Assembly: GCA_014381725.1 (NCBI GenBank)
Contig: JACNLC010000027.1
Coordinates: 1 to 36,282 of the forward strand
Reading direction: 5' to 3'
DNA from: Fidelibacterota bacterium
GTDB lineage: Bacteria > Fidelibacterota > Marinisomatia > SCGC-AAA003-L08 > JACNLC01
Length of the DNA: 36,282 bases
Part shown: positions 9,951 to 29,830 of the stretch, piece after piece
How the letters are laid out: every line of letters starts with the position of its first letter
Position numbering within the stretch: position 1 is the first letter of the stretch
The notes under the pieces: generated by a model
Told to the model about the DNA's origin: nothing
The model's input: only the letters and a program-made list of their open reading frames with translations
The model's database searches: none
Translations under genes and position numbers: made by a program

Positions 9951-9970
9951 TGTTACAAACTGATACACTT
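9951..9970 (+). promoter_or_regulatory. 20-bp motif shared with the region upstream of the giant gene
   Basis: TGTTACAAACTGATACACTT, about 100 bases before the C25 gene at 10072, matches 18 of 20 positions of the sequence at 29581-29600 upstream of the giant gene. It lies in the short intergenic region downstream of the MarR gene. It may be an operator or promoter element; this is inference from position and similarity. Confidence 0.4.
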
Positions 9971-10015
9971 TACTTCTATACTTAATAACAAAAACATTTT
10001 TATTTTCCAATGGGG

Positions 10016-10040
10016 GAATTGAGCAATCTTATTGCAATTC
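10016..10040 (+). promoter_or_regulatory. Imperfect inverted repeat in the leader of the C25/pgs operon
   Basis: Arms GAATTGAGCAAT and ATTGCAATTC flank CTT; GCAAT/ATTGC and GAATT/AATTC pair with a 2-base bulge. It is about 30 bases upstream of the C25 start and its AGGAG ribosome-binding site. It could be a regulator-binding site or a leader hairpin; nothing decides between them. Confidence 0.3.
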
Positions 10041-10071
10041 AGTTAAAATTTAAAGAGAAGAAGGAGAAACA

Positions 10072-13000: not shown

Positions 13001-15504
13001 CAGGTGGCCCGGTTGCTATGGTTGCAGCATTTTGGGATGATTTGAAAACAACAGGTGGTGGAAATGTATATGTTGATTCTGATAATGAAAGAGTCATTGT
13101 TGAATGGTCAAATATGAAAACTCAGAATAATAACCATACAGAAACATTTCAATTGATTTTATATAATAATCCAATTCCACCGTATGGAAATGGCGAAATT
13201 AAACTGCAGTATAAAACTTATAACAATACATCATCAGGCAACTACTCCGGTTATACACCGATACACGGAGGATATTGCACAATTGGTACTGAAAATCATT
13301 TTAGTAATGATGGTTTACAATATACATTCAATAATGAATATGCTCGGGCTGCAATGGTTCTAGATGATGAAACTGCTCTATTTATTACAACTCAAGCTCC
13401 AATAACAATGCCAATTCCTGCTTTGTCATATACTCCTGGGTTGCTTGATTTTCAAATTTTTCAAGGTCAATCAGCTACTGAAGAAATTGTAATATCAAAT
13501 AATGGTGAGAGTGGCTCAATGTTAACTTATGATGTTGATATAGAATATCCAGAATCTACATCTCCATTTGATAATACAGGTGGTGGTCCTGATAATGCAG
13601 GTTATTTTTGGAGTGATTCTGATATAAGTTCAGAAATTGAATATAATTGGATTGATATTTCAACTAATGGATCTCAATTAGAATTTTCAACAAATGACCA
13701 AGCTCCTCCAGCAATTGATTTAGGTTTTGATTTTCCTTTTTACGGACAATCTTATAACCAGTGTATTGTAAATCCTAACGGTTGGGTCGGTTTTGGTAGT
13801 GATAATACATCGTGGAATAATGCAGGAATTCCATCTGTTTCTGCTCCTCAACCAGCTATATTTGCATTTTGGGATGATTTGAGTCCTACAAACAATGGTG
13901 CTTCTGGTTGTTACGATGATGGTGGGAATGTATATGTGCGTTCAGAAGGTGATAAATTTATTGTATGGTTTGATGATGTTTATCATTGTTCAGAGACTTA
14001 TTCTGGGTTGTATGATTTTGAAGTTGTTATTTATGATAACGGAAATATTGATATCAATTATAGAGAAATGCAAGGTACAGTAACAAGTAGCACAATTGGA
14101 ATTCAAAACGCAGTAGGTAGTGATGGTTTACAAGTTGTTTACAATAATAACTTCGTTCAAGATCAGTTATCATTGCAATTTAGAAAACCAAGTACTGCTA
14201 ATTGGTTAGATTTAACTTCTAGCAACGATCTTTCTGGAGAGCTAGAATATGGTGAATCGACTAGCATTACTGTAGAAGCAAATTCTGCTGAATTACTTGA
14301 AGGATTATATAGTGCATCAATTAATATTCAAACAAATGCCCAACCATTGGCAGAAATCCCAGTTTCAATGACTGTATCTTATGCTGCGGTTACTATAGAT
14401 TTACCTTTCCAAAATGGTTGGAATTGGTTTTCAGTAAATCTTGAAAATAATGATATGGGTTTAGAAAATGTGCTATCAACACTCGGTGAAAGCGCTAATC
14501 TAATTAAAAGCCAAACTGGATTTGCAACTTATTACGAAGGTTTTGGTTGGTACGGTATGGATTTAATTGAAAATGAAAAAATGTATATGATTAATATGCT
14601 TGCCAGTGAAAATTTAGTTTTCCAGGGTATTCCTGTTGATTTTGTTAATACACCAATCAGCTTATCTGATGGTTGGAACTGGATTGGTTATTTACCTCAG
14701 TTACCAAATACCCTAAACGAAGCACTTTATAGTATTGGAGATTTAGGTAGTTTAATTAAAAACCAAACTGGATTTGCAACTTATTACGAAGGTTTTGGTT
14801 GGTACGGTATGGATTCTATGGATCCAGGACTTGGATATATGTTGCAAATGTCTGATTCAGCTCAATTGATTTATGGTGCTCCAGATGGATTAACCAAAAT
14901 TAAAAATAGTGAAGTTAATGAACTACACTGGAGTGTTGACTATCGTGCATTTGAATATAATATGACAATTACTGCCCAATTAGATAATATATCAGAGGGA
15001 GATGTTTTATCTGCGTTTGTTGGCGATGAAGTTAGAGGAGTTACAGAAGCAACATATTTCCCATTATCAGATAGCTATACTTTTAATCTAATGGTTTATG
15101 GTGAAACTGATGAAGAGCTCACTTTTAAAGCATTCCAATCAGGAAGAGAAGTTGAAGTAAATGGTAAAGTTACATTTGAGATTAACGGTATTGTTGGTAA
15201 CGACTTTGAACCGATTTTACTGAAGACTAACAATCTACCAACTGAATTTGGATTATTACAAAATTATCCAAATCCGTTTAATCCTTCAACGGTTATAGGT
15301 TATCAGTTAAAAGTTAACAGTGATGTTAGAATAGATATTTTCAATATCAATGGGCAATTAGTTGAAGAATTAGTACAAGGTGAATTAGAAGCAGGATATC
15401 ATTCAGTAGTTTGGAATGCTGATAATTTTGCATCTGGTGTATATTTTGTTAAATTGCAAGCTGGTGCCTTTATACAAACGCACAAGCTAGTATTGATGAA
15501 ATAG
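10072..15504 (+). CDS. Giant gingipain-like (peptidase C25 family) multidomain secreted protein
   Basis: An 1810-residue protein: signal peptide (1-21), a gingipain-propeptide-like region (~25-190), a C25-type caspase-fold domain (~216-560), Ig/CARDB-like domains (~565-875), two related beta-sandwich domains (~877-1120 and ~1170-1377), two GWNW repeats of 84 residues (~1448-1603), a beta-sandwich module shared with the giant downstream protein (~1617-1718), and a type IX sorting domain (NYPNPFNPSTVIGY from residue 1731). In the C25 domain the nucleophile-position Cys450 is present (TCGTGGF), but the His expected in the gingipain NYxGHG motif reads NYRGYWG (Tyr422). Proteolytic activity is therefore doubtful or uses another His. 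An AGGAG site precedes the ATG. It heads the operon containing pgsBCW, 27 bases before pgsB. Family membership is firm, function is not. Confidence 0.85.
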   Translation: MKKLGVIFGFTMLMLVSVQANSSKFSYEGENGLKSTLRFEVGETQLKTVENYQQIVNNELGGIGEEGMPNIPLYSTLYQIDPSKTYEVEYSVIQSHILQNIWIEPYQYEKADSEMIVNEDFYSSSSVYPTENLLVSDPVVMRDLYALNISVVPYKFYPKTQELEVFDEIEIYITETGQSANTEFSTKPRSRVFENLYSEMTVNFTPRDSEEFQQPAVLYICDGNTDDNLYFQQLEQWRHKRGYIVYKASTDDIGTSASSIKNYIQQAYDSFTPTPEFVALVGDVDGPNNFDIPTYFESWSGYSGEGDHPYSQLDGNDLLPEVILGRISVRSNTDLAIVVNKILQYEKATDLQQNISYYEKAALIGDPSDSGVSTIITNEYLAEVMSANGMTDIREKYSGGSWSSWMQNQLDEGVLYFNYRGYWGTSGFDSGDINSANNGFKLPFATVLTCGTGGFSETTCLSESFLKAGTSPTSPKGAIASVGTATIGTHTAFNNIIDMGIYDGIFTKNVETAGEALVYGKLAIYNTYPTNPNNKVSIFTHWNNLMGDPTTHLWTDTPLQLTVDHQESIDFGTNYLEVFVHDVNGHSIDDAVVTLLKGNDEIFISNTTGNSGYAYFDLDYYSEGEISITVTKRNCQPYEGTVDIVSPAQNVNLDNQSAILVVDGNDGMLNPGETVDLSIALTNYGTSNLSGVTATLSSLSSDIVTITDPTVSYGSFVSGQTKTETGFTFILSSSATSYDDLYFMLSIEDNASNTWYSVIPIIVYGPYLSVIDNGNVAPGQTADVYISLENLGLTSIDGISAELSYDGDLIDVIESTISWGDITPGNTVVSQNPVTIAVSGDIVKGTIISLPLHIQSTFGYDRIEYYNIQIGEVTPYDPMGPDMSGYYIYDSGDIGYDLAPVYNWIEINPSNGGSGTSLNLSDSGDGNFSNAISYVNLPFNFRYYEVEYDEITVCTNGWIAFGHSELESFRNYPIPGAGGPVAMVAAFWDDLKTTGGGNVYVDSDNERVIVEWSNMKTQNNNHTETFQLILYNNPIPPYGNGEIKLQYKTYNNTSSGNYSGYTPIHGGYCTIGTENHFSNDGLQYTFNNEYARAAMVLDDETALFITTQAPITMPIPALSYTPGLLDFQIFQGQSATEEIVISNNGESGSMLTYDVDIEYPESTSPFDNTGGGPDNAGYFWSDSDISSEIEYNWIDISTNGSQLEFSTNDQAPPAIDLGFDFPFYGQSYNQCIVNPNGWVGFGSDNTSWNNAGIPSVSAPQPAIFAFWDDLSPTNNGASGCYDDGGNVYVRSEGDKFIVWFDDVYHCSETYSGLYDFEVVIYDNGNIDINYREMQGTVTSSTIGIQNAVGSDGLQVVYNNNFVQDQLSLQFRKPSTANWLDLTSSNDLSGELEYGESTSITVEANSAELLEGLYSASINIQTNAQPLAEIPVSMTVSYAAVTIDLPFQNGWNWFSVNLENNDMGLENVLSTLGESANLIKSQTGFATYYEGFGWYGMDLIENEKMYMINMLASENLVFQGIPVDFVNTPISLSDGWNWIGYLPQLPNTLNEALYSIGDLGSLIKNQTGFATYYEGFGWYGMDSMDPGLGYMLQMSDSAQLIYGAPDGLTKIKNSEVNELHWSVDYRAFEYNMTITAQLDNISEGDVLSAFVGDEVRGVTEATYFPLSDSYTFNLMVYGETDEELTFKAFQSGREVEVNGKVTFEINGIVGNDFEPILLKTNNLPTEFGLLQNYPNPFNPSTVIGYQLKVNSDVRIDIFNINGQLVEELVQGELEAGYHSVVWNADNFASGVYFVKLQAGAFIQTHKLVLMK
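14501..14563 (+). repeat. Internal direct repeat, copy 1 (with 14753-14815)
   Basis: A 63-bp block recurs 252 bases (84 codons) downstream at 14753-14815 with a single mismatch. It encodes the QTGFATYYEGFGWYGMD core of the two GWNW-type repeats of the C25 protein. The flanking parts of the repeat units are much more diverged, so this patch looks recently copied or homogenised. Confidence 0.85.
14753..14815 (+). repeat. Internal direct repeat, copy 2
   Basis: Second copy of the 63-bp block at 14501-14563, in the same reading frame of the same gene. Confidence 0.85.
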
Positions 15505-15531: not shown

Positions 15532-16692
15532 GTGGTTATTGGAACACTTATAATTTTATTGTTAATAATGGTTTTGTTTGGTATTTGGGAAGTGTACCAA
15601 CATCATCGTTCTATATCCAATATTCCGATTAGAATTCATATAAACGGGGCACGCGGTAAATCTAGTGTAACTCGATTAATTTCTGCTGGTCTGAGAGCAG
15701 GTGGATTTAGAACTATTGGTAAAACTACAGGTTCTGCACCTCGAGTTATAGATATAGATGGCAAAGATCGCATTATTCATCGGCTTAGGTCCGCATCAAT
15801 AGGTGAGCAGATAAAATCTATAAGAAGTTTTTCAAAAAAGAAAATTGATGCATTAGTAATAGAATGTATGGCTGTCTTACCTCAATATCAGTGGATAGCA
15901 GAGCACAAAATGGTAAAATCCACAATTAGTGTAATTACAAATGTTCGGCCTGACCATATTGATGAGATGGGACCAACAATGGAAGATATTGCTAATTCTT
16001 TAGGAAATACAATTCCATTCAATGGAACATTGATTACTGCTGAACGGGATATGCTTCACACACTTTCAAAAGTTGCGGAAAGCAGAGATACCGATGTTCA
16101 AATAGCTTCACCAGAAATTGTTACTGAAGAATTTATGTACAAGTTTCCCTATGTAGAGCACCGAGAGAATGTTGCTCTTGCATTAAAAGTTTGCAGATTA
16201 CTCAAAATAGATGACAAAACAGCTCTAAAAGGGATGTTGAATGCTCAACCTGATCCTGGTGCATTGTTCATTCAAGAATTGAAATTTACAGGTTCTGAGA
16301 ATTATTTTGTTAACGCTTTTGCAGCAAATGACCCACAGTCAACTCACACTATTTGGGAATCTGTATCGAAAAGATTACCTAATTATCCAGCCTGCGTATT
16401 TTTGAATACACGAGATGATCGTCGTTCACGAACCGAACAATTATTAGAAATGACATTCCAAAAAATAAAACCTTCTAAAATTATTATTCGTGGAGATAAT
16501 ATTCCAGATATTAACAATTATAAAAATGGTTTTGATTTTGATTTGAGCATTTTCCCAAATTCTGCTGATACAGAACAAATAATTAGTGATTTTGAGTCAA
16601 TGAATAATCACATTATTTTTGGTATTGGAAATATGGTTGGATGGGGTGAACAACTAGTAAAAGAACTAAGGGAATATAAAAATAATGGTTGA
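15532..16692 (+). CDS. pgsB: PgsB/CapB, poly-gamma-glutamate synthase ligase subunit
   Basis: A 386-residue Mur-ligase-like amide ligase. In characterised systems PgsB uses ATP to add glutamate through gamma-peptide links, acting at the cytoplasmic face with PgsC. The sequence has an N-terminal membrane anchor (residues ~2-20) and a P-loop NGARGKSSVTRL (residues 38-49), the family's hallmark. Further family-like segments are ALVIECMAV, SVITNVRPDHIDEMG and FLNTRDDRRSRTEQ. Length is typical. The start is a GTG preceded by AAAGGA. It overlaps pgsC by 8 bases. It directly follows the C25 gene, and no PgsA/CapA homologue is seen in the window. Confidence 0.93.
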   Translation: MVIGTLIILLLIMVLFGIWEVYQHHRSISNIPIRIHINGARGKSSVTRLISAGLRAGGFRTIGKTTGSAPRVIDIDGKDRIIHRLRSASIGEQIKSIRSFSKKKIDALVIECMAVLPQYQWIAEHKMVKSTISVITNVRPDHIDEMGPTMEDIANSLGNTIPFNGTLITAERDMLHTLSKVAESRDTDVQIASPEIVTEEFMYKFPYVEHRENVALALKVCRLLKIDDKTALKGMLNAQPDPGALFIQELKFTGSENYFVNAFAANDPQSTHTIWESVSKRLPNYPACVFLNTRDDRRSRTEQLLEMTFQKIKPSKIIIRGDNIPDINNYKNGFDFDLSIFPNSADTEQIISDFESMNNHIIFGIGNMVGWGEQLVKELREYKNNG

Positions 16693-17131
16693 AATTGCAA
16701 TTGGTTTAGGAATATTCCTGAGTTTGGTTTTCACAGAAACCTTAGGGGTTACCGCCGGTGGATTAATTGTTCCGGGTTATATAGCATTGAATCTAAACGA
16801 CCCTTTGCGTGTGATTAGCACATTTGCAATTAGTTTATTAGTGTTTATGGTGGTAAAAGGTTTCTCGGATAAACTGTTGATTTACGGAAAACGTCGTCTG
16901 GTATTTTCTTTATTATTGGGCTTTATATTTGGTTACTTATCAAGACAACATTTATCTTTCCCACAGGATGATTTGAATTTATCATCAATTGGATATATTA
17001 TTCCAGGTTTGATTGCAAGTTGGATGGACCGTCAAGGTGTTGTAAGGACGATTAGTGTAATTGTTATTACAGCAAGCATCGTCCAGTTAATGTTAATGAT
17101 TTTTGAAAAAGGGTTGATTCATAATGTTTAG
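16685..17131 (+). CDS. pgsC: PgsC/CapC, poly-gamma-glutamate synthase membrane subunit
   Basis: A 148-residue membrane protein with about five hydrophobic segments. The N-terminus (LSLVFTETLGVTAGGLIVPG, then YIAL) is the conserved start of PgsC/CapC, which forms the minimal polymerase with PgsB. Length matches the family. It overlaps pgsB by 8 bases and the next gene by 8 bases, so the three are almost certainly translated together. Confidence 0.93.
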   Translation: MVEIAIGLGIFLSLVFTETLGVTAGGLIVPGYIALNLNDPLRVISTFAISLLVFMVVKGFSDKLLIYGKRRLVFSLLLGFIFGYLSRQHLSFPQDDLNLSSIGYIIPGLIASWMDRQGVVRTISVIVITASIVQLMLMIFEKGLIHNV

Positions 17132-18272
17132 ACCACAAATACAAAAAACTCAAACTCTAGTAGCATTAGCGGTATTTTGTGCAGTTATGGTGTATTGGTC
17201 CTTTCATTCAACAGTTGTGCATGAATCTAGGGGTTACGAAGATAAAATTAATGCAACTGATATTATGTCAAGTGCTTTGAAATCGCTTAAAACATTTGGT
17301 AAAACAGAAAAAAATGTTATTATCTACAAAGATATTGATCCAAATTTTTCAGGATTAATTTTCAAAGATGATACCAAATTAAAAACCGGACCAGGTGATT
17401 TGGAATCAAAACAAACAACATTAAAGCCAAACTTTTCAGCATTAGTTGTCGATTTGTTAATTGAAGCAGGTGTTAAAACAGGCGATACAATTGCAGTTGG
17501 AATGACAGGTTCTATGCCTGGAGCAAACATAGCATTATATAGTGCATGCGAATCTCTTAATGTTGTTCCTATTGTAATATCTTCTGTTGGTGCATCAATG
17601 TGGGGTGCAACTGATACAAATTATACTTGGCTAGATATGGAAAATCATCTTTACAACGAAAATATAATTTCTTATAAAAGTATTGCGGCATCTTTAGGAG
17701 GTGTTGGAGACTGCTTGCGGAAAGATGGAAATTTTGGAGGAGCAGAATCAAGGCGAATTGCAGAAAAGGCAATTGATCGAAATAATGTGAATCTTATCGA
17801 TTATGAAGTTCCAAGAGGGAGGAAAAATCTAAGCAAGAGTATTGAACAGCGAATGGAATTATACAGAAGAGTTGGAAGTTTAAGCTCTTATTCTGTTTAT
17901 GTTAACATCGGAGGAGGTGTATCGAGTCTTGGCGTAGGAGGTGGAGATAAAGTCCGAAAATCTGGTGTACTTTCTGCAGATGTTGTAAATAGTTATGACC
18001 TTAATAATTCAGTAGCCAAAGTGTTTGCTGAGAATGGTATCCAAATTATTCATATTTTACAAATACCTAAACTTGTGAAAAATATAATTCCTTGGGGAAG
18101 TGACAAACTTCCTATTGGAGAAGGAAAATTATTCTATGATAAAAGATACAATTTGTTGGTTACAGTTTTTGCTTTACTACTTTCTTTAGGGTCTGTAATT
18201 GCAGTTGGAATCGTAAGTCATCGGCAAATCAAAAAGCGAATGAGTACTTTTGAACCTGAATCAGTTATTTAA
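17124..18272 (+). CDS. pgsW: PgsW, poly-gamma-glutamate system protein
   Basis: A 382-residue protein of the family annotated as poly-gamma-glutamate system protein, which accompanies PgsB and PgsC in many Gram-negative genomes. It has an N-terminal membrane segment (LVALAVFCAVMVYWSFHS), a large presumably periplasmic domain with Gly-rich motifs (AVGMTGSMPGANIA near residue 130, VGASMWGATD, NIGGGVSSLGVGGGD near 270) and a C-terminal membrane segment (~345-365) followed by a basic tail. Its biochemical role is not established to my knowledge; it probably replaces PgsA in polymer handling. It overlaps pgsC by 8 bases. Confidence 0.85.
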   Translation: MFRPQIQKTQTLVALAVFCAVMVYWSFHSTVVHESRGYEDKINATDIMSSALKSLKTFGKTEKNVIIYKDIDPNFSGLIFKDDTKLKTGPGDLESKQTTLKPNFSALVVDLLIEAGVKTGDTIAVGMTGSMPGANIALYSACESLNVVPIVISSVGASMWGATDTNYTWLDMENHLYNENIISYKSIAASLGGVGDCLRKDGNFGGAESRRIAEKAIDRNNVNLIDYEVPRGRKNLSKSIEQRMELYRRVGSLSSYSVYVNIGGGVSSLGVGGGDKVRKSGVLSADVVNSYDLNNSVAKVFAENGIQIIHILQIPKLVKNIIPWGSDKLPIGEGKLFYDKRYNLLVTVFALLLSLGSVIAVGIVSHRQIKKRMSTFEPESVI

Positions 18273-18276
18273 TCAT

Positions 18277-19131
18277 ATGATAAATTATAAATTATATTTT
18301 GCAGTACTATTTTGTGTTTTCACTTTTGGGAAAACGATAAATCCTACTGAGATTACTAAAAGTGAAATATTAGAGATAAAAGGAAAAACAAGAGAGTATT
18401 TTTCTGCTTCAAGCAATCTGTTACAATATAAAGTTGCTGGACCTAGGTTTTTCAGATTAATCTCTCGTTGTGCAGTTCCGCAGGATTTAAATCTTGATGT
18501 TAATTATAGCTTTGAGATTAAAATTGATAACGAATACAAATTTGCTACTTCTCACAGTACAAATATTTTTGAGAAAATTCAGTCAAACCAACATCCAGGA
18601 TATGGCTATACAATCTCTAGAAATGATATAATTTATGTACCTAATGGTGATCATACAGTTTCTCTTATACCGACTGATAACAAAAATCCAATATTATTTA
18701 GAATGATAACTCACAATCTTAACCAGAGAAAAGAAGAATCTGAAGTTATTATAGGATTTAATGAACAAATTATTCATCATTTAAAAGTTGGAAATAGTTC
18801 ATTACCATACACTTTGCTAGATTCAGAAAATAAATTTGAATTTGAGATTGAAGGTAAAGGATTTGTTGATATAATCAGTAGATTAGTTATTGAAAATGAC
18901 AATTCTGAAAATGGAGTATATAGTATAGTTGTTCAAAAAGATGGCAAAGAATATCGAACTTACCATCTTCAAACAGAAACATCTAATCAAAGTACTATAA
19001 TCGAAAATTCTGATATTATTCCCGGGAAGTGGCGAACATCTCAGATAAAAGTTCCTACAGGGAAACACCATTATACTATTCGATGTTTGAATGATAATCA
19101 ATCAATCTACATTAGATGTTTACAGCATTAA
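18277..19131 (+). CDS. Secreted beta-rich protein in the pgs operon, hypothetical
   Basis: A 284-residue protein from the ATG at 18277, 4 bases after the pgsW stop; a TTG at 18250 would extend it but would spoil the signal peptide (MINYKLYFAVLFCVFTFGK). The mature part looks all-beta and appears to contain two related halves: each has a region around a REYFSASSNLLQYKV- or PYTLLDSENKFEFEI-like strand, then FFRLISR or FVDIISR, and a late GDHTVSL or GKHHYTI segment. This suggests two carbohydrate-binding-like beta sandwiches. I do not recognise the family. It has no sorting domain, so it probably stays in the periplasm; a role in polymer export is inference from position. Confidence 0.7.
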   Translation: MINYKLYFAVLFCVFTFGKTINPTEITKSEILEIKGKTREYFSASSNLLQYKVAGPRFFRLISRCAVPQDLNLDVNYSFEIKIDNEYKFATSHSTNIFEKIQSNQHPGYGYTISRNDIIYVPNGDHTVSLIPTDNKNPILFRMITHNLNQRKEESEVIIGFNEQIIHHLKVGNSSLPYTLLDSENKFEFEIEGKGFVDIISRLVIENDNSENGVYSIVVQKDGKEYRTYHLQTETSNQSTIIENSDIIPGKWRTSQIKVPTGKHHYTIRCLNDNQSIYIRCLQH

Positions 19132-19136
19132 TCGAG

Positions 19137-20186
19137 ATGAAATATCACAAATTATTTTTTCTTTTTATGCTATTTGGAATGAATCTAAGTGCATCGTCTT
19201 TTATTGTTGGTTTTAAAGTACCAGTCTATTTAACTGCATCAATCCGGTTTGGGTATGATTCAAATGTTTTGAAATTGTCGTCAGAAGAACAAAGTCGAGA
19301 TGAAGTTAATTTTATTCTAGGTTCTGCAGACACTTTTGATAGTGGATTTACACGAAAAAATCTAATGATTAAATACTCTCCGAGAATTATTGAGAATCAC
19401 AAAACAAAAATTGTTATGAATATTGCACAAACTGAATACTATCAGCATAGTGATAAATCTTTCGTCTCATTTTCGGTTTCTGCGGAACAACATTTCGATA
19501 GTTATCATTGGTTAAAATTTAGATATTCTAATTTACCAACATATTACATTAGACCGTATCGAGATTCAGATACATTTTCAGATGGATTGCAGTCCTGCGA
19601 TTTTTCGAACGAAAACATTCGGCTTATTTATTCTGTACCGGTGTATAACAAAACTTCAATTAAAATCAGACTAGGAAGAACAAAATTATATTACAATCCA
19701 TATTTTACTGAATTTGATACCGATGTTACAAGTTTTAGGACAACACTAAGTATTTACAAAATTAAACCCTTCAAATTTATTGCTTGGGCAGAGCTTGGAA
19801 CAGGCAATAATATTTCTTACTTGTCAGAAACCACTTCTTCAAAATTTGATAGATCTTACAAATATAATCAATTTGGAGGAGAAATCGAATGGTCTCCAAA
19901 GTCTATTATCAAATCAGTTGGATTTTCGATTGATATTCACCAACGATATTATTTATCTGAGGGAGAAGATGATCCTTTACACAGCGGACGAAAACACGAG
20001 GATGTTAAATCCATGGCTTGGATTAAAAAAGATGTTACAAATAAACTTGGATTTAGTCTATCTGTAGTCAATCGTCAAAAAACTACATTTTCCGATTATT
20101 CGTGGGTTCAAGATTTAAAGAGTTATAATAAATTTGAAATTTGGCTGGGATGTTCCTATAAAATGTATTTTAATTTTCTGTATTAA
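19137..20186 (+). CDS. Predicted outer-membrane beta-barrel protein of the pgs operon
   Basis: A 349-residue protein starting at the ATG at 19137, 5 bases after the previous stop; an upstream in-frame ATG at 19116 would place seven residues before a good signal peptide (MKYHKLFFLFMLFGMNLSAS). The mature sequence alternates polar and aromatic/hydrophobic residues in many short strands and ends in an amphipathic strand with a C-terminal aromatic (YKMYFNFLY), typical of outer-membrane barrels. There are no cytoplasmic domain motifs. It overlaps the next frame's first possible ATG by one base. In this operon it is the obvious candidate for an outer-membrane pore or anchor for poly-gamma-glutamate. 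Barrel prediction is by eye. Confidence 0.65.
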   Translation: MKYHKLFFLFMLFGMNLSASSFIVGFKVPVYLTASIRFGYDSNVLKLSSEEQSRDEVNFILGSADTFDSGFTRKNLMIKYSPRIIENHKTKIVMNIAQTEYYQHSDKSFVSFSVSAEQHFDSYHWLKFRYSNLPTYYIRPYRDSDTFSDGLQSCDFSNENIRLIYSVPVYNKTSIKIRLGRTKLYYNPYFTEFDTDVTSFRTTLSIYKIKPFKFIAWAELGTGNNISYLSETTSSKFDRSYKYNQFGGEIEWSPKSIIKSVGFSIDIHQRYYLSEGEDDPLHSGRKHEDVKSMAWIKKDVTNKLGFSLSVVNRQKTTFSDYSWVQDLKSYNKFEIWLGCSYKMYFNFLY

Positions 20187-20200
20187 TGAGGTTGATAAAG

Positions 20201-21247
20201 ATGAAAAAATTACTAATAATCGCAATATTGTTTTTTGGTTGTATGAATCCGGAAGATCCAATAATTGATGAAGAAATTTTACCGACAGTCATAATTCCAA
20301 CTATTGGATTTTGTAGAGATGTTGATATTCGTGATAGTATATTAGTTGCCGCAAACGATGAAAACGGATATATGGTGGTTAGCATAAATGAAAATTTAGA
20401 TTTTGAAATACTGTATGAAGCTGAACTCGATCCTTTGCTTCACGCAGATAGAGTTAAAATCTCGGATTTATATAATTATTTTTTAGTCCTTGATGTAAGA
20501 GATGTGATTGTCAAAGTAGATTTTGCTGATTTTAGTTCTATATCCAGTGTTCTTCCATCACCAGATTCAGAAAATCGTCCAGATGATACTAGAAGTTTTG
20601 TGATAGACGAAACCGATCCAAATCTTTTGAGACTATATTCCCTATGGATAGAAAATGATCATTCAGAGATTTATAAAAGAAATTATTGGTATGAAGACAT
20701 TTCTAATCCTGATTCTATTGTATTCTTTGATTTTCTCGATGCAAATAGCCATCAAGATTTCTACAATTCCAATGCTCAAGAGTTATATTTGTCAGATAGT
20801 TTGTTATCTATAGCAAATTCTCAATTAGGAGTTATAGTTTTAAGAAAAGATGGAAATGGTGATTTAACAGAATTATCTAGATTTGATACACCTTTATCTA
20901 GCGAAGTTGAAACTGTGTTTAGTGTCGGGAATATTATTTTTTCAGGTTTATCATACAATGGTGGTTGTTATGCAGTAGAACTAGATTTAACAACGGGAGA
21001 AGTTGCTGATTCTGTTGATTTTGCTTCCGGTTATAGTGTTAATGGAATTTATGGAGATGAGAATCTGATTGTTTTAGCTTGTGGTTATGATGGAGTATTA
21101 TTGTATCGTTGGAATTCAGATTTGAACAATGTTGAATTTGTTGCAAAATTAGTATCACAGGGATATGCGTACAAAGTTAAATTAGAAGAGAGTAATGTGT
21201 TTGTAGCTACTCGAAATGGAATTGAAATATTTGAAATAGAAAGGTAA
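20201..21247 (+). CDS. Predicted beta-propeller lipoprotein
   Basis: A 348-residue protein from the ATG at 20201, which has a GAGGT ribosome-binding sequence in front; an in-frame ATG at 20186 overlaps the previous stop and is less likely. The signal sequence MKKLLIIAILFFGC ends in a weak lipobox with Cys14, followed by acidic residues, so it is probably a lipoprotein. The rest is a series of roughly 40-50-residue beta units (SILVAANDENGYMVVSI, YFLVLDVRDVIVKVDF, SLLSIANSQLGVIVL, LIVLACGYDGVLLYRW, NVFVATRNGIEIFEI) resembling LVIVD-type propeller repeats. Such proteins often bind partners at the membrane surface. Its place after the barrel gene suggests a partner of the barrel. Confidence 0.7.
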   Translation: MKKLLIIAILFFGCMNPEDPIIDEEILPTVIIPTIGFCRDVDIRDSILVAANDENGYMVVSINENLDFEILYEAELDPLLHADRVKISDLYNYFLVLDVRDVIVKVDFADFSSISSVLPSPDSENRPDDTRSFVIDETDPNLLRLYSLWIENDHSEIYKRNYWYEDISNPDSIVFFDFLDANSHQDFYNSNAQELYLSDSLLSIANSQLGVIVLRKDGNGDLTELSRFDTPLSSEVETVFSVGNIIFSGLSYNGGCYAVELDLTTGEVADSVDFASGYSVNGIYGDENLIVLACGYDGVLLYRWNSDLNNVEFVAKLVSQGYAYKVKLEESNVFVATRNGIEIFEIER

Positions 21248-21251
21248 AATA

Positions 21252-24200
21252 ATGTTTAAGAAAGTATTAGTATTTAGTCTATTAACTATAGTTTTTGGTC
21301 AATTTGATTGGGACGATGGAGGTATTCCTCTTAGGCAAGGTATTCACACAGAATGGCAAAGAACAGCATCCATCGGACATGATGGAGAAGTGATATTTGT
21401 TTGGTCTGATACAAGAGATGGTGGAAGAGATATTTTTGCTCAAAAAGTAAATTCTGATGGGGAAATTCTATGGCAAACAAATGGAGCTCCTTTAGTAACT
21501 GAATTGGGAAGACAAGAAGATCCGATTGCTATTTCAGATGAGAATGGTGGAATATTTATGATTTGGAGAGATTATCGAAACGAACCTGAACATGGAGATG
21601 TATATGCACAGCATGTTCTTTCAGATGGAAACTTGGGATGGGATATAGCTGGAGTTCCACTTTCTATTGTTTCAGGAACTCAGGAATCTCTAAATATGTG
21701 TTCAGACGGACTCGGAGGAGTTTTTGTAATTTGGAATGACAAATCTCAAACAAGTAGTGCATCTGGATTTACTTATGGAACTCATATTTCAGCATCGGGA
21801 GAGATTGTTGAAGCAGGTATTGGAGTTCCTATTATTACAAGTTCTGGTTCTCATACAAGTGTAAGTTTTGAAAATAGTGGAGATGGATATGCGAGTTTGG
21901 TTTGGGAAGATGCTAGAATACCAGGCGAAATAGATATTTACACACAAAGGATTGATTCAAATTGCAATATTTTGTGGGGAGACGAAGGTGGAATCCCAGT
22001 TTGTACATTAGCGGGAATTGATCAAAACTCACCAAAGGTAAACCATATCTCTGATAATAGAACAGTAATTGTTTGGGAAGATGAACGCAATGGTGTGGAC
22101 AATAATGACATCTTTTTGCAAATATTGGACGAATTAGGAAATAAACTACTAGAAAACGATGGACTTAATATTTGCTCAAACGAATTTGCCCAATTCAGTC
22201 CTCGAGTTAAAACAGATTCTGATATTATTTTTGTGGTTTGGGAAGATGAAAGAAATGACGATGGAGATATTTATGCACAAGCATATTCTGCCAGCAATGG
22301 AATTTTGTGGGAAGAAAATGGAAAACCTATTGCATCACTTGAGAGGAAACAGACTCAAGCTCGTTTAGCTGGAGATGGTAGTGGTGGTGTATATTTTACT
22401 TGGATGGATGAAAGAAATGCAGTTCACCCACAGATTGATATATTCTTTCAACAAGTTAATTCTAGTGGAGACTTGGTTTTTCAATCTAACGGAATTGCAA
22501 TAAGTGAGGCAAGTAATTATCAATTCAACCCAATTGTGAGAAAAGATAATTTCGGTGGAGCTTTTGTTGTATTCGGAGACCAACAAACCGGCAGTATTGA
22601 TATGGCTGTCCAACATATTGACCAAACAGGCACCACCTTTGAAAACAATGGTAAAATTATTTTTACTGGACTTGATGGAGATGCAATCTCACCAAAATTA
22701 TTGTATTTAGGAGATAATAAAACTTTAGCTTACTGGAAAGATATGAGAAACGGTGGTGGTACTCCGCAAACTTATGGACAGATTATTACAGGTGATTTTC
22801 CGAATATTTCGGAACTAAATGGTCAATTGCTTTGTGAAAATCAATATCAAGATTATCCATCTGCGACACATATTGGTGATCATATCTTCCTTAATTTTCT
22901 CTGTGAAGAAGAGGATGGGACTAAAACGCTTTATTATATTGTTCTTGACCAGAACTTGAGTCCAGTAATGGACCCAAATGGATTACCAATCTACGCAAAT
23001 GAGTGGAATATGAATCAATTAAATATTAGTGTAACTGTCGGAACAGATAATTTTTTGTATGTTGCATATTCAGATATTCAATTATGGGATTATGATATAA
23101 AGTTACAGAAATTTGATGAATTTGGAGTTACCCAATGGGCTGACGGTGGCGTAACAGTTACCCAAATGGGAAATGATGATATTGTATTAGGCATAGAGCC
23201 AATACAAAACGAAAGTGGTGGGTGTGTTGTGTTTTGGGAAAATAACAGCGATGATACTAATTTAGATTTATATGCCCAAGCCGTAGATTCTGATGGTAAT
23301 TTTCCAGATGAGTGGGTTTCAAATCCGTTGGTTATATCTGATGGAAGTGGAGATCAGACTGCTTTAAAAACTCTTCGAACCGATGATGGTGTGTTTATGG
23401 CCTGGAAAGACAGTCGTAATGGAACTGATTCCGATATTTATGGCCAGTTTATATCTGATAATGGACAAATTATCGGAGAAGAAAATGGAACATCGATTGT
23501 TACAAAAGCCAATGATCAGCTAAATCCATCGTTTGACTACGATTTCTCTCATAATCGTTTTATGGTTTGTTGGGAGGACTTTGAAAATGGAATGAATTAT
23601 GATGTTTTATGTAGCGAAATTGATATGTCAGATGGAATGAATGTAGATGATGAAGTAGTTTTAGCTGGAGGGGACGGAGATCAATTAGCTCCATTTGTTT
23701 ATTTCAAGGAATTGTTTTATGTAGATGGTGTTGAAAGATTTATGTTTGTTTGGGAAGATAGTAGAATGGGTTTAGGTACCGATATTTATTATCAAGAAAT
23801 AGATTCTGTTGATAATTTAATGTTTGAAGAAGGTGGAATTGTAATTTGTGATGCGGATTTTTCACAACAATCACCCAAGATTGAATTATATTCCGAAGAT
23901 CAACAGTCCTATGTAATTTTATGGGAAGACTTAAGAAGTTCAGGGAAAGAAGAGCTAAGAAATACTTATGTCCAGTCTAGATCTTTTTATGAATATGCAG
24001 ATAATAATAGTGAATTATCAATAGTCAATTATCAATTACTAAATGCTTACCCAAATCCGTTTAATCCGAGTACAACAATTAGCTATGCGGTAGAGTTAAA
24101 CGGTCGTTTGTCTCTACAGGTTTACAACATTAATGGCCAACTTGTAGAAACACTAGTTGATGGTAATGTAGATACAGGTTATCATTCAGTTACTTGGAAT

Positions 24201-24287
24201 GCAGAAAATTACCCAAGCGGAATTTATTTTGCAAAATTAATTGCTGGAGATTTTACTAAAACACAAAAATTGGTTTTGGTAAAATAA
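21252..24287 (+). CDS. Secreted repeat (beta-propeller-like) protein with type IX sorting domain
   Basis: A 1011-residue secreted protein with signal peptide MFKKVLVFSLLTIVFGQ. Residues ~20-905 contain about 14 degenerate repeats of some 60 residues with the core [VI]W-x-D-x-R-(n)-D-I-[YF]-[AT]-Q followed by G-x-[IL]-x-W-x-x-x-G-x-P. Examples are VWSDTRDGGRDIFAQ, VWEDERNDDGDIYAQ, AWKDSRNGTDSDIYGQ and VWEDSRMGLGTDIYYQ. The pattern fits one or two beta-propellers. The C-terminus is a sorting domain (AYPNPFNPSTTISY to KLVLVK) closely similar to those of the M14 and first C25 proteins. It starts 4 bases after the lipoprotein stop. No catalytic motif is evident; a surface binding or scaffold role is inference. 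Confidence 0.8.
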   Translation: MFKKVLVFSLLTIVFGQFDWDDGGIPLRQGIHTEWQRTASIGHDGEVIFVWSDTRDGGRDIFAQKVNSDGEILWQTNGAPLVTELGRQEDPIAISDENGGIFMIWRDYRNEPEHGDVYAQHVLSDGNLGWDIAGVPLSIVSGTQESLNMCSDGLGGVFVIWNDKSQTSSASGFTYGTHISASGEIVEAGIGVPIITSSGSHTSVSFENSGDGYASLVWEDARIPGEIDIYTQRIDSNCNILWGDEGGIPVCTLAGIDQNSPKVNHISDNRTVIVWEDERNGVDNNDIFLQILDELGNKLLENDGLNICSNEFAQFSPRVKTDSDIIFVVWEDERNDDGDIYAQAYSASNGILWEENGKPIASLERKQTQARLAGDGSGGVYFTWMDERNAVHPQIDIFFQQVNSSGDLVFQSNGIAISEASNYQFNPIVRKDNFGGAFVVFGDQQTGSIDMAVQHIDQTGTTFENNGKIIFTGLDGDAISPKLLYLGDNKTLAYWKDMRNGGGTPQTYGQIITGDFPNISELNGQLLCENQYQDYPSATHIGDHIFLNFLCEEEDGTKTLYYIVLDQNLSPVMDPNGLPIYANEWNMNQLNISVTVGTDNFLYVAYSDIQLWDYDIKLQKFDEFGVTQWADGGVTVTQMGNDDIVLGIEPIQNESGGCVVFWENNSDDTNLDLYAQAVDSDGNFPDEWVSNPLVISDGSGDQTALKTLRTDDGVFMAWKDSRNGTDSDIYGQFISDNGQIIGEENGTSIVTKANDQLNPSFDYDFSHNRFMVCWEDFENGMNYDVLCSEIDMSDGMNVDDEVVLAGGDGDQLAPFVYFKELFYVDGVERFMFVWEDSRMGLGTDIYYQEIDSVDNLMFEEGGIVICDADFSQQSPKIELYSEDQQSYVILWEDLRSSGKEELRNTYVQSRSFYEYADNNSELSIVNYQLLNAYPNPFNPSTTISYAVELNGRLSLQVYNINGQLVETLVDGNVDTGYHSVTWNAENYPSGIYFAKLIAGDFTKTQKLVLVK

Positions 24288-24290
24288 CTA

Positions 24291-24313
24291 GACAAGTGGT
24301 CAGTCCACTTGTT
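24291..24313 (+). other. Intergenic hairpin without T-run
   Basis: ACAAGTGG and CCACTTGT form a perfect 8-bp stem around TCAGT in the 55-base gap before the M14 gene. There is no following T-tract, so it is not a standard terminator; it may be a processing or partial-attenuation hairpin inside the operon. Confidence 0.45.
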
Positions 24314-24342
24314 CACTATTATAGGAAATTATAAAGGATTTT

Positions 24343-26667
24343 ATGAGATATAGATTCACATCTATGATATTATTTCTTGTTGGAGCAACCTTTTTGTTTA
24401 CTCAGGAAGAACTTCACGAAAGGTATCATACTTACGAAGAAATCAGAGAACAGCTTGAATTATGGGATGAACAATTTGGGAACAATACTGAACCATCTCC
24501 AGCATTTCCAGGAAGTGGAATTATTTATCAATTAGAAGAAATTGGAATATCATCAACTGACGGACTTCCTTTTTGGGGTGTTAAATTATCATATAACGCC
24601 GATATAAAAGAAGATGAAGCTAGAGTATTATTTTTAGGGCAATGCCACGCAGAAGAAATCTATGGAATTGAAATTGCAATGGAGATAATAAAAATGGTTT
24701 TGGAACCAACTCCGCCGATCACAAACCTAAAATATATACTTCAAAATGCGGAAATTTGGGTGGTGCCTACACATAATCCGGAAGGATTGCGTGTTGTTCA
24801 CGGGTATAATGACGACGATATTTGGGTTCAGGATGTTGCGTATAGAAAAAACCGTAGAGATGTAGATTTTAATGGTATTTTCAATTTTGTTGAAGGAGCT
24901 GGAAATGATTCTGATGGCGTTGATTTAAATCGAAATTATGACTTTAATTGGTTTAGAGGTGACGAGCTTTGGGAGGGCGACCCATCTCCATATCAAGCAC
25001 ATTATGATTATTACAAAGGTGAATATCCATTTTCTGAATTAGAGCTACAAGGAATAAGAGATTTTGTAACTGACAAGAATTTTTTGCTATCTATTGCTTA
25101 TCATAGTTCTCGTTCTGGCAATGTATCAGAACAAGTCATATATTCTTGGGAGTGGGAAGGCAATAAATATCCCCCAGATTTCCCTGTAATTAGTACAATG
25201 GCTGAAAATATTGCAAATTTAATCCCTACTGAGACTGGGATTGATTTTCAGTATTATATTCCTGTTGCAGGTTCATCTCGTAAAGGAAGTGCGCACGATT
25301 GGTTTTATGCGAAAGATGGTTGTATTCAATATCTAATTGAAACTGGGACTGAAAATTTGCAATCCGATGATGTAGATATAATTGATGGCACAATTGAACG
25401 AAATTTGAGAGGTGCGTATTATTTAATGAACCGTGCAGTTGGTTATGATTCAGGAGAATATGGTGCTGAAAAGTATCAAATAACTGGGAATGTATTTGAT
25501 TCTCAAACGATGGAGCCAATTCAAGATGCTGATGTAAGAATTGTTGAAATGGACGGGAAAATGTTGGAAAATCGAACAACAGACGAATTTGGTAGATATA
25601 GACGGTTACTGGTTCCTAGTACTTTCAATATTGAAGTTGAAAAAAGAGGATACGAAAAACAGAGTCTTCAGTTTACTCCAAGTAGTTCTGTGATTTTACA
25701 AGAAGATTTTTACTTAGAACCGTTGAATGAATTCCATTTAACTCTGAATTTAAATTCACCCTCCTCTGTAGAAATTAGCATTTCTGATGAGTATGGAGAA
25801 ACAAGTTACACAAATATCGAATCTTCACTTCAATTATTATTACCTAAGAATTCATATTACATCACAGTATTTGGTGAAAACTTATTATCGCAATTCATTG
25901 ATGTTGAGTTGTTTTCTAACTTGACTTTGGATATCTTTATTGAATATTCCGAAATTGTGTTTGATGAAGGTTTTAATAATCTAGATAATTGGGAGATCGT
26001 GTCAGGTAGTTGGTTAGTTGAAGATGGCATGTTACAATCCCAAAACGAAAGTTTGTACCCAAATAATAGTATTTTAATTCGGTCAAACATCATCAATCTT
26101 ATTGATGTAGATGAAATGGAATTAAAACTCAATTTCCAATATGAAATGGAATGGGAAACTGATTCGTTGTTTATCAGATTTATTAGTGAACAAGATACTT
26201 CTGAAATATTCTGGGATGACCAAAATTGGACTTTACATGAAGAACATCATCCAATTTCAATTTCTGGAGAATCAATGTTCATAGAAATAGAAATTAGACC
26301 GGACAATACCGTTGGGTATAGAGGATTGAAAACTGATCAATTATCTATTTATAAAGGTAATGGGAATATTGTTAGTAATGAAATTAATAGCTTACCAGTC
26401 CACTATAATTTGTTTCAAAATTATCCAAACCCATTCAATCCAAGAACAGTTATTGGTTACTCAGTAGAGACAAGCGGTTATTTGTCTCTACAAATTTATA
26501 ATTTACACGGACAACTTGTTGATGAATTAGTAAGCAGTGGCAGTAGGCAGGAACCGGGTTATCATCAAGTTATTTGGAATGCAGAAAATCATCCAAGTGG
26601 AATTTACTTTGCAAAATTAGTAGCAGGAGATTTTACTTCAACAAAAAAATTATTATTACTAAAATAG
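24343..26667 (+). CDS. Secreted M14-family zinc carboxypeptidase with type IX sorting domain
   Basis: A 774-residue protein: signal peptide (1-20), M14 metallocarboxypeptidase domain (~55-370), carboxypeptidase regulatory-like beta domain (~375-460), a jelly-roll-like region around residues 545-675, and a sorting domain (NYPNPFNPRTVIGY to KLLLLK). The zinc ligands read His102-x-x-Glu105 (QCHAEEIYG) and His254 (IAYHSS); the catalytic acid is Glu333 (LIETG), and GVDLNRNYDFNW is a typical substrate-pocket segment. All key residues are therefore present and the enzyme should be active. Within a poly-gamma-glutamate operon a substrate with C-terminal or gamma-linked glutamate is possible, but ordinary protein trimming at the surface is equally compatible. 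AAAGGA precedes the ATG. Confidence 0.88.
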   Translation: MRYRFTSMILFLVGATFLFTQEELHERYHTYEEIREQLELWDEQFGNNTEPSPAFPGSGIIYQLEEIGISSTDGLPFWGVKLSYNADIKEDEARVLFLGQCHAEEIYGIEIAMEIIKMVLEPTPPITNLKYILQNAEIWVVPTHNPEGLRVVHGYNDDDIWVQDVAYRKNRRDVDFNGIFNFVEGAGNDSDGVDLNRNYDFNWFRGDELWEGDPSPYQAHYDYYKGEYPFSELELQGIRDFVTDKNFLLSIAYHSSRSGNVSEQVIYSWEWEGNKYPPDFPVISTMAENIANLIPTETGIDFQYYIPVAGSSRKGSAHDWFYAKDGCIQYLIETGTENLQSDDVDIIDGTIERNLRGAYYLMNRAVGYDSGEYGAEKYQITGNVFDSQTMEPIQDADVRIVEMDGKMLENRTTDEFGRYRRLLVPSTFNIEVEKRGYEKQSLQFTPSSSVILQEDFYLEPLNEFHLTLNLNSPSSVEISISDEYGETSYTNIESSLQLLLPKNSYYITVFGENLLSQFIDVELFSNLTLDIFIEYSEIVFDEGFNNLDNWEIVSGSWLVEDGMLQSQNESLYPNNSILIRSNIINLIDVDEMELKLNFQYEMEWETDSLFIRFISEQDTSEIFWDDQNWTLHEEHHPISISGESMFIEIEIRPDNTVGYRGLKTDQLSIYKGNGNIVSNEINSLPVHYNLFQNYPNPFNPRTVIGYSVETSGYLSLQIYNLHGQLVDELVSSGSRQEPGYHQVIWNAENHPSGIYFAKLVAGDFTSTKKLLLLK

Positions 26668-26676
26668 GAAAACAAA

Positions 26677-29577
26677 ATGACAAATATTAAAAGCTATGCA
26701 AACAAACTAATTCTGATTGTGGTTGTTTATTGTTCAACAATTTTTGCAGTTGATTACATCCCATTATCTCAAAAATACATGAATAACATTGATAGAGACG
26801 CTGAATATACCCGGGGAAATTATTTAATAGTACTTGCTCATAGTGATTTAAACGATTATCTAACAAATCCCAATGATGTGCCAATATATGGTGGGGATTT
26901 TGTTGAGTTTAAACGAACACAAGGTTTTGATGTGGATGTTATCTCTATGGACGAAGAAGGTATATCTACTGCAGACGAGTTGAAAACACATATTGAAAAT
27001 TACTACAATCAACATCCATTATTGGAGTATGTGTTATTGGTAGGAGATGTGAACGGGACTTTAATAATTCCAACATTTTTTATCAATTCAATAAATGAAG
27101 ATGAAGAAGATGTTACAGATTATCCATATACATTTTTTGATAATCCTTTGCAACCGAATTTTTTTCTTGGTCGATGGTCTATTAGAAGTAGCGGAGATTT
27201 GTTAAATATTAAAACTAGGTCAATGCAATATTATCTAATGGAAGAGGTTTCTGAAAATGCAGATTATTTGAATAGTGCGTTGTTAGTTGCAGGAAATTAT
27301 AGTACAAACGATGGTACTGAAATACCTCCATCTAGTTGGCCAGTTACACCTGTTTGGACATCATATTGGTTAATGGATCGTTTGTATGGTTATGGGTACA
27401 CAGATATTGACACAGCATTTTTTCACGCAGATTATCAAGTTGAAGAAAATCCTCTTGTTGTCAATTCTTGGACAGATGGTGTTGGAGTAATAAATTATCG
27501 TGGTTGGGGTAATTCTCACGGTTGGCATAAACCCGCATTTTATATTGAAGATATTAATGATTTGAATCACGGATGGAATCTCCCAATTGTTATGAGTTTT
27601 GTTTGCAATACTGGAGATTTTGGCGCAGATGTTCCACCGCAAAGTGGACCTGCTAAATGTTTTGGAGAAGAGTTATTAACACGAGGAACTCCCTTTAGCC
27701 CTAAAGGAGCAGCAGCAATGGTTGGACCATCAGACCTTGATACTGATACAAAATATAATAATGTAATTTGTGCAGTAATGTGGGATAATTTACTCGAGGA
27801 AAATGTTTCTGAATTAGCTCCTGCACTCTTTTCTGGGAAACAATCTTTAATTGCAGAATTTCCAGAAAATCCAGATGGGGTAGTGGAGTTTTATCATCAT
27901 GTCTATGGTATTTTGGGTGATCCTTCAATTTCTGTGAGATTACACGAACCAAGCGAAATTGATGTTGACTATGTTTCAGACAACTTGAATCAATCGTATA
28001 TTTTTGTAGAAGTCTATGAAGAAACAGAAAGTAATCCGATTGTTAATGCTGTAGGTGCATTAATGTATAATGGAGAACTAATAGGTAAAGCACTCACTAA
28101 TTGGAATGGCGATTTATATATTGATTTTGATGGAGTGCCAAATGGCTCGACTTTAGACTTATACATCAATAGTCCGCAGTATTATCAAAAACATATAGTT
28201 TTCAATTATATCGAGGATGGCGGAACACCATACGACCCAGATGTTTTTTTAGCATTTGATATTACTCCGATTCTATCAAATGGAGAGACTTATATTTCCC
28301 CAAATGAAGATATTGATTTTTCATTAGAAATTTTCAATTACTATTCAGAAACACAACAAATCACAGTTTATATTGAAGATTTTCAGGAAGTTATGGAAAA
28401 TGATAATTCTACACCAGAAACGATAGAAATTCCTGCATTGAGCTCTAGCGAAACTGGAGTTCTCTTTAGCGGAAACCTTGGGAATTATGCAATTGGCAGC
28501 AGAATTATTTTTGGTGTTGGTTTTGAAATTGACGGAATTCAAGTTGGTGGAAATTATATAGAAATTATGATTGGACCAGTTGCAGAAACTGATCCGGTTC
28601 CTGCTGATAATTACGGATATTGGGCTTATGATAATTTGGATTTAAGTTATGAAGAATCTCCAGTTTACGATTGGGTTGAGTTGAATCCAGATGACGGTGG
28701 TTTAGGTACAAATCTTAATTTAGTGGACGATACTGTTACAGAAATTGAAATTGGATTTACATTCAAATATTATGGGGTGGAATACACAACCGCAACTGTT
28801 AGTTCAAACGGATGGCTATCATTTGAACCTTGTCAAATCCCGTATTTCTGGAATTTCTCAATCCCGATGCCGTTAGGACCATCTGCCCTAGTTGCACCAT
28901 TTATGGACGATTTAGATGATAATGTCGGTACAGAACCCTTTAATGTATTTTTATTTTCTGATAATGAACGATTGATAATCCAATGGGATAATGTATCAAA
29001 TGGCGAGGATGACGAAAATTGTCCAGATTGTGTTAAAGAAACATTCCAGTTAATATTAAATAATCCAAGTACTTATCCTACTCCAACTGGAGATGGTGAA
29101 ATTATATTCCAATATCAAGAAATTCACGATATTGATTTGAACGGCAACTATTCTACAATAGGGATTGAATCTCCAGATCAAAACAGTGGATTACAATATC
29201 TTTTTAATAACCAATTAAGTTTGGGAGCATCACCTATAGTTGAAGGAACTGCAATTAAAATAACAACAACACCACCTGCAAATTCTCTCAAAAATCAGGA
29301 AGAAATTAGTATAAAGGATTACTTATTGTTAAGTAGTTATCCTAATCCATTTAATCCAGTTACAAATATTACATATTTTCTACCAACATCAGGTGCTACA
29401 ACAGTTAATGTTTACAATCTTCTTGGTAAAAAGTTAATCACATTGTTTAACGGATATCAATCTGCAGGGAATTATAATATCACTTGGGATGCATCAAGTT
29501 ATTCTACTGGGTTGTATTTTGTGCAAGTAGTACACGGAAATCGAAGCAGTTATGTTAAAGTTGTACTCTTAAAATAA
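26677..29577 (+). CDS. Second gingipain-like (C25 family) secreted protein with sorting domain
   Basis: A 966-residue protein: signal peptide (1-24), C25-type domain (~48-430) starting directly after it with no long propeptide, Ig/CARDB-like domains (~430-645), a beta-sandwich related to the two in the first C25 protein (~645-870), and a sorting domain (SYPNPFNPVTNITY to KVVLLK). Cys310 (VCNTGDF) occupies the nucleophile position. The catalytic-His motif reads NYRGWGNSHGW: Trp277 stands where gingipains have His, and His281 four residues later is the only nearby candidate. It starts 9 bases after the M14 stop. It may be a peptidase with a shifted His, a sortase-like C25 protein, or an inactive binder. 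Confidence 0.83.
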   Translation: MTNIKSYANKLILIVVVYCSTIFAVDYIPLSQKYMNNIDRDAEYTRGNYLIVLAHSDLNDYLTNPNDVPIYGGDFVEFKRTQGFDVDVISMDEEGISTADELKTHIENYYNQHPLLEYVLLVGDVNGTLIIPTFFINSINEDEEDVTDYPYTFFDNPLQPNFFLGRWSIRSSGDLLNIKTRSMQYYLMEEVSENADYLNSALLVAGNYSTNDGTEIPPSSWPVTPVWTSYWLMDRLYGYGYTDIDTAFFHADYQVEENPLVVNSWTDGVGVINYRGWGNSHGWHKPAFYIEDINDLNHGWNLPIVMSFVCNTGDFGADVPPQSGPAKCFGEELLTRGTPFSPKGAAAMVGPSDLDTDTKYNNVICAVMWDNLLEENVSELAPALFSGKQSLIAEFPENPDGVVEFYHHVYGILGDPSISVRLHEPSEIDVDYVSDNLNQSYIFVEVYEETESNPIVNAVGALMYNGELIGKALTNWNGDLYIDFDGVPNGSTLDLYINSPQYYQKHIVFNYIEDGGTPYDPDVFLAFDITPILSNGETYISPNEDIDFSLEIFNYYSETQQITVYIEDFQEVMENDNSTPETIEIPALSSSETGVLFSGNLGNYAIGSRIIFGVGFEIDGIQVGGNYIEIMIGPVAETDPVPADNYGYWAYDNLDLSYEESPVYDWVELNPDDGGLGTNLNLVDDTVTEIEIGFTFKYYGVEYTTATVSSNGWLSFEPCQIPYFWNFSIPMPLGPSALVAPFMDDLDDNVGTEPFNVFLFSDNERLIIQWDNVSNGEDDENCPDCVKETFQLILNNPSTYPTPTGDGEIIFQYQEIHDIDLNGNYSTIGIESPDQNSGLQYLFNNQLSLGASPIVEGTAIKITTTPPANSLKNQEEISIKDYLLLSSYPNPFNPVTNITYFLPTSGATTVNVYNLLGKKLITLFNGYQSAGNYNITWDASSYSTGLYFVQVVHGNRSSYVKVVLLK

Positions 29578-29640: not shown

Positions 29641-29830
29641 GAAGTATATTGTAATTATTATTACTTTATGTTTGTATTCATATTTATTAGAGGAGATTTA
29701 TAATTGTTTGTGCAAAATATGTGATTAGTGTCACATTGTTTTAGGGGTTTTTACCCTTATTTTTGTACAATATATTGTGAATAATTTTTTATTTAACAAA
29801 CAAAAACGAAGGATAAAAGAGGAGATAATC

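What the first reader, a model, noticed from the sequence alone, without database searches (positions are those of the whole stretch)
15532..29577. Poly-gamma-glutamate synthesis genes embedded in an operon of type IX-secreted proteins
pgsB, pgsC and pgsW overlap each other and sit inside a run of ten close-packed genes that also encodes a predicted outer-membrane barrel, a propeller lipoprotein and four sorting-domain proteins (two C25-like, one M14, one propeller repeat protein). PgsA is not seen. Established knowledge: PgsB/PgsC polymerise gamma-linked glutamate. Inference: this is a Gram-negative surface-polymer system in which synthesis, export and type IX-secreted enzymes or binders are made together.
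Basis: partly seen in the sequence, partly recalled or inferred. Interest (0 to 1): 0.75.

Follow-up and report, generated by a model that had tools for sequence, protein, structure and literature searches.

The report
Trans-envelope polyglutamate machine in FCB bacteria
In a marine bacterium, the genes that make poly-gamma-glutamate sit in one tight block with genes for an outer-membrane pore, a periplasmic protein, a surface lipoprotein and several secreted surface proteins, and much of this block recurs in many distantly related two-membrane bacteria, so it is a good candidate for the unknown route by which such bacteria export this polymer.

Summary
PgsB, PgsC and PgsW are certain (NCBIfam, above cut-off) and sit in a ten-gene run with an unreported two-domain beta-sandwich protein (ORF4), a 14-strand barrel (AlphaFold pLDDT 93), a lipoprotein with propeller-type matches (lipobox Cys in 51/51 homologues), and C25, M14 and repeat proteins with type IX tails. 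In 199 genomes of the phylum the barrel occurs in 73, of which 71 are among the 75 with PgsW. In 69 of 78 cases it lies 632-1841 bp downstream of pgsW; the nine exceptions are contig ends (5) or a separate pgsBCW type (4). pgsBCW-ORF4-ORF5, often with ORF6 and a C25 gene, recurs in Bacteroidota, Ignavibacteriota, Cloacimonadota, Zixibacteria, Calditrichota and others. The type IX part is looser: in relatives the tails can be replaced by dockerins, and ORF7/M14/second C25 are mostly seen in Marinimicrobia. The C25 proteins keep the catalytic Cys but nearly all lack the His, so they are probably not ordinary proteases; M14 looks intact. Best reading: a diderm poly-gamma-glutamate synthase with its own outer-membrane exit, a new variant of a known kind. 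Polymer identity, transport direction and transcript are untested.

The parts
10072..15504 (+). C25a: 1810-aa C25-family protein, propeptide and type IX tail; catalytic Cys kept (TCGTG), His replaced by Tyr (NYRGY)
   Evidence: C25 gene also adjacent to pgsBCW in many other genomes
15532..16692 (+). pgsB: poly-gamma-glutamate synthase ligase subunit; P-loop (NGARGKSS in the window, nearly invariant in 41 homologues)
   Evidence: TIGR04012 434.7 bits; conservation
16685..17131 (+). pgsC: membrane subunit
   Evidence: TIGR04011 127.9 bits, PF14102
17124..18272 (+). pgsW: poly-gamma-glutamate system protein, hydrophobic segments at both ends
   Evidence: TIGR04332 245.7 bits
18277..19131 (+). ORF4: signal peptide plus two tandem beta-sandwich domains, predicted periplasmic
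   Evidence: AlphaFold pLDDT 91.8; PDB fold matches to tandem CBM-like sandwiches at low TM; start at ATG 18277 inferred
19137..20186 (+). ORF5: 14-strand outer-membrane beta-barrel, candidate exit pore
   Evidence: AlphaFold pLDDT 93.1, pTM 0.86; Foldseek CymA/OmpG; Met 8 of the longer frame nearly invariant
20201..21247 (+). ORF6: lipoprotein (lipobox LFFGC, Cys invariant in 51/51), sequence matches to beta-propellers
21252..24287 (+). ORF7: repeat (propeller-like) surface protein with type IX tail
   Evidence: TIGR04183 47.8 bits; orthologues next to ORF6 in Marinimicrobia
24343..26667 (+). M14 zinc carboxypeptidase with type IX tail; zinc ligands and catalytic Glu intact
   Evidence: PF00246 110 bits; residues conserved 20/20
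26677..29577 (+). C25b: second C25-family protein with type IX tail; Cys kept, His replaced by Trp (NYRGW)
29742..29759 (+). terminator-like hairpin plus T run in the gap after C25b, possible end of the unit (weak)
   Evidence: 7 such sites found in the region, 7.5 expected by chance

Best explanation
A trans-envelope poly-gamma-glutamate synthase of two-membrane bacteria. PgsB (ATP-dependent amide ligase) with PgsC polymerises glutamate at the inner membrane; PgsW takes the place of PgsA/CapA on the outer face; ORF4 (two beta-sandwiches) bridges the periplasm; ORF5 (14-strand barrel) is the outer-membrane exit; ORF6 is an outer-membrane lipoprotein that guides or holds the polymer; the C25, ORF7 and M14 proteins are surface proteins that bind, process or trim it. 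Shown: gene identities, predicted folds, lipobox, active-site residues, strict co-occurrence and order across genomes. Inferred: polymer identity, direction of transport, role of each accessory protein, single transcript.
For: PgsB, PgsC and PgsW above curated cut-offs; PgsB P-loop nearly invariant in 41 homologues. The barrel is found in 73/199 phylum genomes, 71 shared with the 75 that have PgsW, 632-1841 bp downstream on the same strand in 69 of 78 cases; five exceptions end at a contig edge and four are the other pgsBCW type. The two barrel-only genomes both break off at a contig end beside the cassette. Same order in other phyla: ORF4 in 66/69 and ORF5 in 55/57 loci with enough sequence. 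ORF5 model pLDDT 93.1, closest to OmpG/CymA pores. ORF6 lipobox Cys 51/51.
Against: No biochemistry. Neither PgsBC activity nor export through ORF5 was shown; solved 14-strand pores such as OmpG and CymA take up solutes (own knowledge), whereas known polymer exporters have 16-18 strands (PMC9601211). This cassette has no glutamate racemase, gamma-glutamyltransferase or known polyglutamate hydrolase in it, unlike the other pgsBCW type. ORF6 was not found near pgsW in 12 of 45 cross-phylum loci. The 80 cross-phylum loci were chosen for similarity to this PgsW, so they show breadth, not frequency.
Confidence: 0.6

Rival explanations
1. The PgsBCW product is not a free capsule but a gamma-glutamyl (or other amide) polymer attached to surface proteins or lipids; the His-less C25 proteins and the carboxypeptidase modify or attach it.
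For: A C25 gene is adjacent in many genomes; the cassette C25s share an NYRG motif with Cys kept and His lost in nearly all; M14 intact.
Against: No linkage or acceptor was found; the real type IX sortase PorU is elsewhere in this genome and keeps its His; several cassette loci have no C25 gene in the stretch held.
Confidence: 0.15
2. Uptake, not export: barrel, lipoprotein and carboxypeptidase collect peptides or gamma-glutamyl compounds from outside, and pgsBCW stores the product or only shares regulation with them.
For: The nearest solved folds to ORF5 are solute pores; M14 carboxypeptidase is intact.
Against: The strict link is with the synthesis genes, and M14 is not seen near the cassette in most phyla that keep the barrel.
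Confidence: 0.1
3. Ordinary neighbours without functional link.
For: ORF7, M14 and C25b vary between phyla.
Against: Order and linkage of pgsBCW-ORF4-ORF5 kept across many phyla.
Confidence: 0.03

Closest known systems
Bacillus PgsBCA/CapBCA poly-gamma-glutamate synthase
   Same: PgsB and PgsC equivalogs above curated cut-offs
   Different: PgsA absent from the locus, PgsW in its place, plus outer-membrane barrel, beta-sandwich protein and lipoprotein; two membranes to cross. PgsBC without PgsA still makes L-rich polymer in B. subtilis (PMC6029982).
Other pgsBCW type in the same phylum (L051, L052, L053, L060)
   Same: pgsB-C-W core
   Different: Separate PgsB clade (100/100 support); in L052 the neighbours include gamma-glutamyltransferase, glutamate-racemase-like and AstE-like genes; no ORF4-ORF6
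Polysaccharide exporters with an outer-membrane barrel (AlgE, PgaA, BcsC; EpsX/EpsY)
   Same: Inner-membrane synthesis plus periplasmic part plus barrel, genes linked
   Different: 16-18 strands there (PMC9601211), 14 here; ORF4 is two beta-sandwiches and gave no Pfam family shared by its homologues; product a polyamide
Gingipain/PorU C25 family
   Same: C25 domain, propeptide, type IX tail, catalytic Cys
   Different: Catalytic His replaced by Tyr, Trp, Phe or Glu in nearly all cassette members; PorU model gives 19-63 bits where it matches, against a cut-off of 420

Membership tests
Poly-gamma-glutamate synthase (PgsBC) | PgsB and PgsC homologues above curated cut-off, adjacent | tested here: met
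   434.7 and 127.9 bits, 8-bp overlap
Poly-gamma-glutamate synthase (PgsBC) | P-loop of the ligase | tested here: met
   N38, G39, R41, G42, K43, S44, S45 invariant in 41 homologues
Poly-gamma-glutamate synthase (PgsBC) | PgsA/CapA (accessory) in the operon | tested here: not met
   None in the window; a PF09587-dockerin protein on contig C1. Dispensable for synthesis in B. subtilis (PMC6029982)
Poly-gamma-glutamate synthase (PgsBC) | Makes a gamma-linked glutamate polymer | not testable with these tools
   needs chemistry
Type IX secretion substrates (C25a, ORF7, M14, C25b) | Por_Secre_tail at the C terminus above cut-off | tested here: met
   SprA and a PorU-like protein in the genome
C25 cysteine peptidase | Catalytic Cys and His | tested here: not met
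   Cys kept, His replaced in both window proteins
M14 carboxypeptidase | HxxE, second His, catalytic Glu | tested here: met
   conserved 20/20
Outer-membrane beta-barrel (ORF5) | N-terminal signal-like helix and closed barrel | tested here: met
   14 strands, pLDDT 93.1

The most novel reading that the evidence does not exclude
The cassette is a covalent surface-anchoring system: polyglutamate made by PgsBCW and passed out through ORF5 is joined to surface proteins by the NYRG-type C25 proteins, acting as amide-forming rather than cleaving enzymes.
Probability: 0.1. Interest if true: 0.88.

Novelty: new variant of a known kind. Interest (0 to 1): 0.62.

Why it matters
Poly-gamma-glutamate synthesis is well studied in bacteria with one membrane. 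How two-membrane bacteria bring it through the outer membrane is, to my knowledge, open, and I found no paper on this cassette or on PgsW in the library searched. The strict link of one barrel family to pgsBCW across many phyla names a testable exit channel and several new accessory families.

Tried and rejected
C25a as the type IX sortase PorU: rejected, 19-63 bits where matched against a cut-off of 420; a true PorU-like protein is on contig C28. Pfam for ORF4 over 83 homologues: no family shared. PgsW against solved structures: no relative. Promoter and terminator scan: counts near chance. An unbiased survey of Bacteroidota could not be run. Papers on PgsW or TIGR04332: none found.

Full report
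Observation. All ten genes are real, on one strand and tightly packed. PgsB, PgsC and PgsW exceed their curated cut-offs. Four neighbours carry type IX tails. The stretch given starts at pgsB and so leaves out the first C25 gene, 27 bp upstream. Likely starts of ORF4, ORF5 and ORF6 are ATG 18277, 19137 and 20201. The genome is 2.18 Mb in 88 contigs, 98% complete, and the window is one whole contig. In a PgsB tree the window groups with Marinimicrobia/Fidelibacterota.

Conservation. PgsW occurs in 75 of 199 genomes of the phylum. Of 40 loci read around it, most keep C25-pgsB-pgsC-pgsW-ORF4-ORF5-ORF6-ORF7-M14-C25 or a large part of it. Searching the same genomes with the barrel alone gave 73 genomes, 71 of them shared. 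In 69 of 78 PgsW matches the barrel is 632-1841 bp downstream on the same strand; five exceptions lie at contig ends and four are another pgsBCW type. The Fisher p-value of 2e-46 ignores kinship and should be read as descriptive. The two barrel-only genomes end at a contig edge beside the cassette.

Breadth. A scan of one genome per species with a PgsW alignment gave 410 relatives; the best 80 lie in Bacteroidota, Ignavibacteriota, Chlorobi, Cloacimonadota, Zixibacteria, Calditrichota, KSB1, Gemmatimonadota and others. ORF4 follows in 66/69 and ORF5 in 55/57 loci with enough sequence; ORF6 in 33/45; a C25 gene lies upstream in 31/55. These loci were picked by similarity to this PgsW. A PgsB tree groups most rows by phylum and sets the other type apart with full support.

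The other type. L051, L052, L053 and L060 carry pgsBCW without ORF4-ORF6. Clusters of gamma-glutamyltransferase-like and AstE-like genes recur beside it; in L052 these were identified together with a glutamate-racemase-like and an N-formylglutamate-amidohydrolase-like gene. Its PgsB scores 250 bits, this type 426-435.

Parts. ORF5 folds as a 14-strand barrel (pLDDT 93.1) nearest to OmpG and CymA. ORF4 folds as two beta-sandwiches (weak CBM-like matches). ORF6 has an invariant lipobox Cys in 51/51 homologues and its profile matches propellers. The C25 proteins keep Cys (82 of 84 aligned) but have E, Y, W or F in place of His in 77 of 84; only three, two of them weak relatives in one Fermentibacteria locus, keep His. 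Alignment to gingipain R confirms the loss in both window proteins. Of the five other C25 proteins of the genome, four keep His; one, on contig C31, does not. M14 keeps all catalytic residues in 20/20.

Tails. In relatives the same C25, ORF7 and M14 proteins may end in dockerin repeats instead of type IX tails. Seven genomes of the window's family and order hold 35-112 dockerin matches, the window's genome 7; all keep type IX tails too. So a surface tag is the constant, but the kind of tag is not.

Mechanism. The best reading is a polyglutamate synthase with its own outer-membrane exit, from anatomy and linkage. Product, direction and transcript are untested. Literature: PgsBC without PgsA makes polymer in Bacillus (PMC6029982); Gram-negative production has been reported for Fusobacterium nucleatum (cited in PMC4497714); known barrel exporters of polysaccharides have 16-18 strands (PMC9601211). 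I found no paper describing this cassette.

Noticed in passing
L032, L034, L039, L040, L041, L045, L046, L049 (C25, ORF7, M14): Type IX tails replaced by dockerin repeats in orthologous proteins; 35-112 dockerin matches per genome in these lineages against 7 in the window's genome.
   Followed up: partly
window 29777-36280: Large open-ended protein with cadherin-like, PKD and cohesin domains directly after the unit.
   Followed up: no
window 7728-9263: Cytochrome with CXXCH-type and MtrC-like matches and a type IX tail, possibly at the surface.
   Followed up: no
L169 (G000:C31): Third His-less C25 gene, beside FliG-, MotA- and MotB-like genes and PEP carboxylase.
   Followed up: partly
L185 (G000:C1), 5416-12775: CapA-domain protein with dockerin, beside dockerin-tailed GH114 and arginine-deiminase-like genes.
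   Followed up: no
L039-L041, L045-L047, L049, L061, L063-L065, L067: Genes that look like type IV pilus parts (pilin, PilT, PilB, PilC, PilD) directly upstream of the cassette in relatives (named by sequence, not by a family search).
   Followed up: no
L084 14344-16314: HGSNAT-like membrane protein and a further gene follow ORF6 in Bacteroidota.
   Followed up: no
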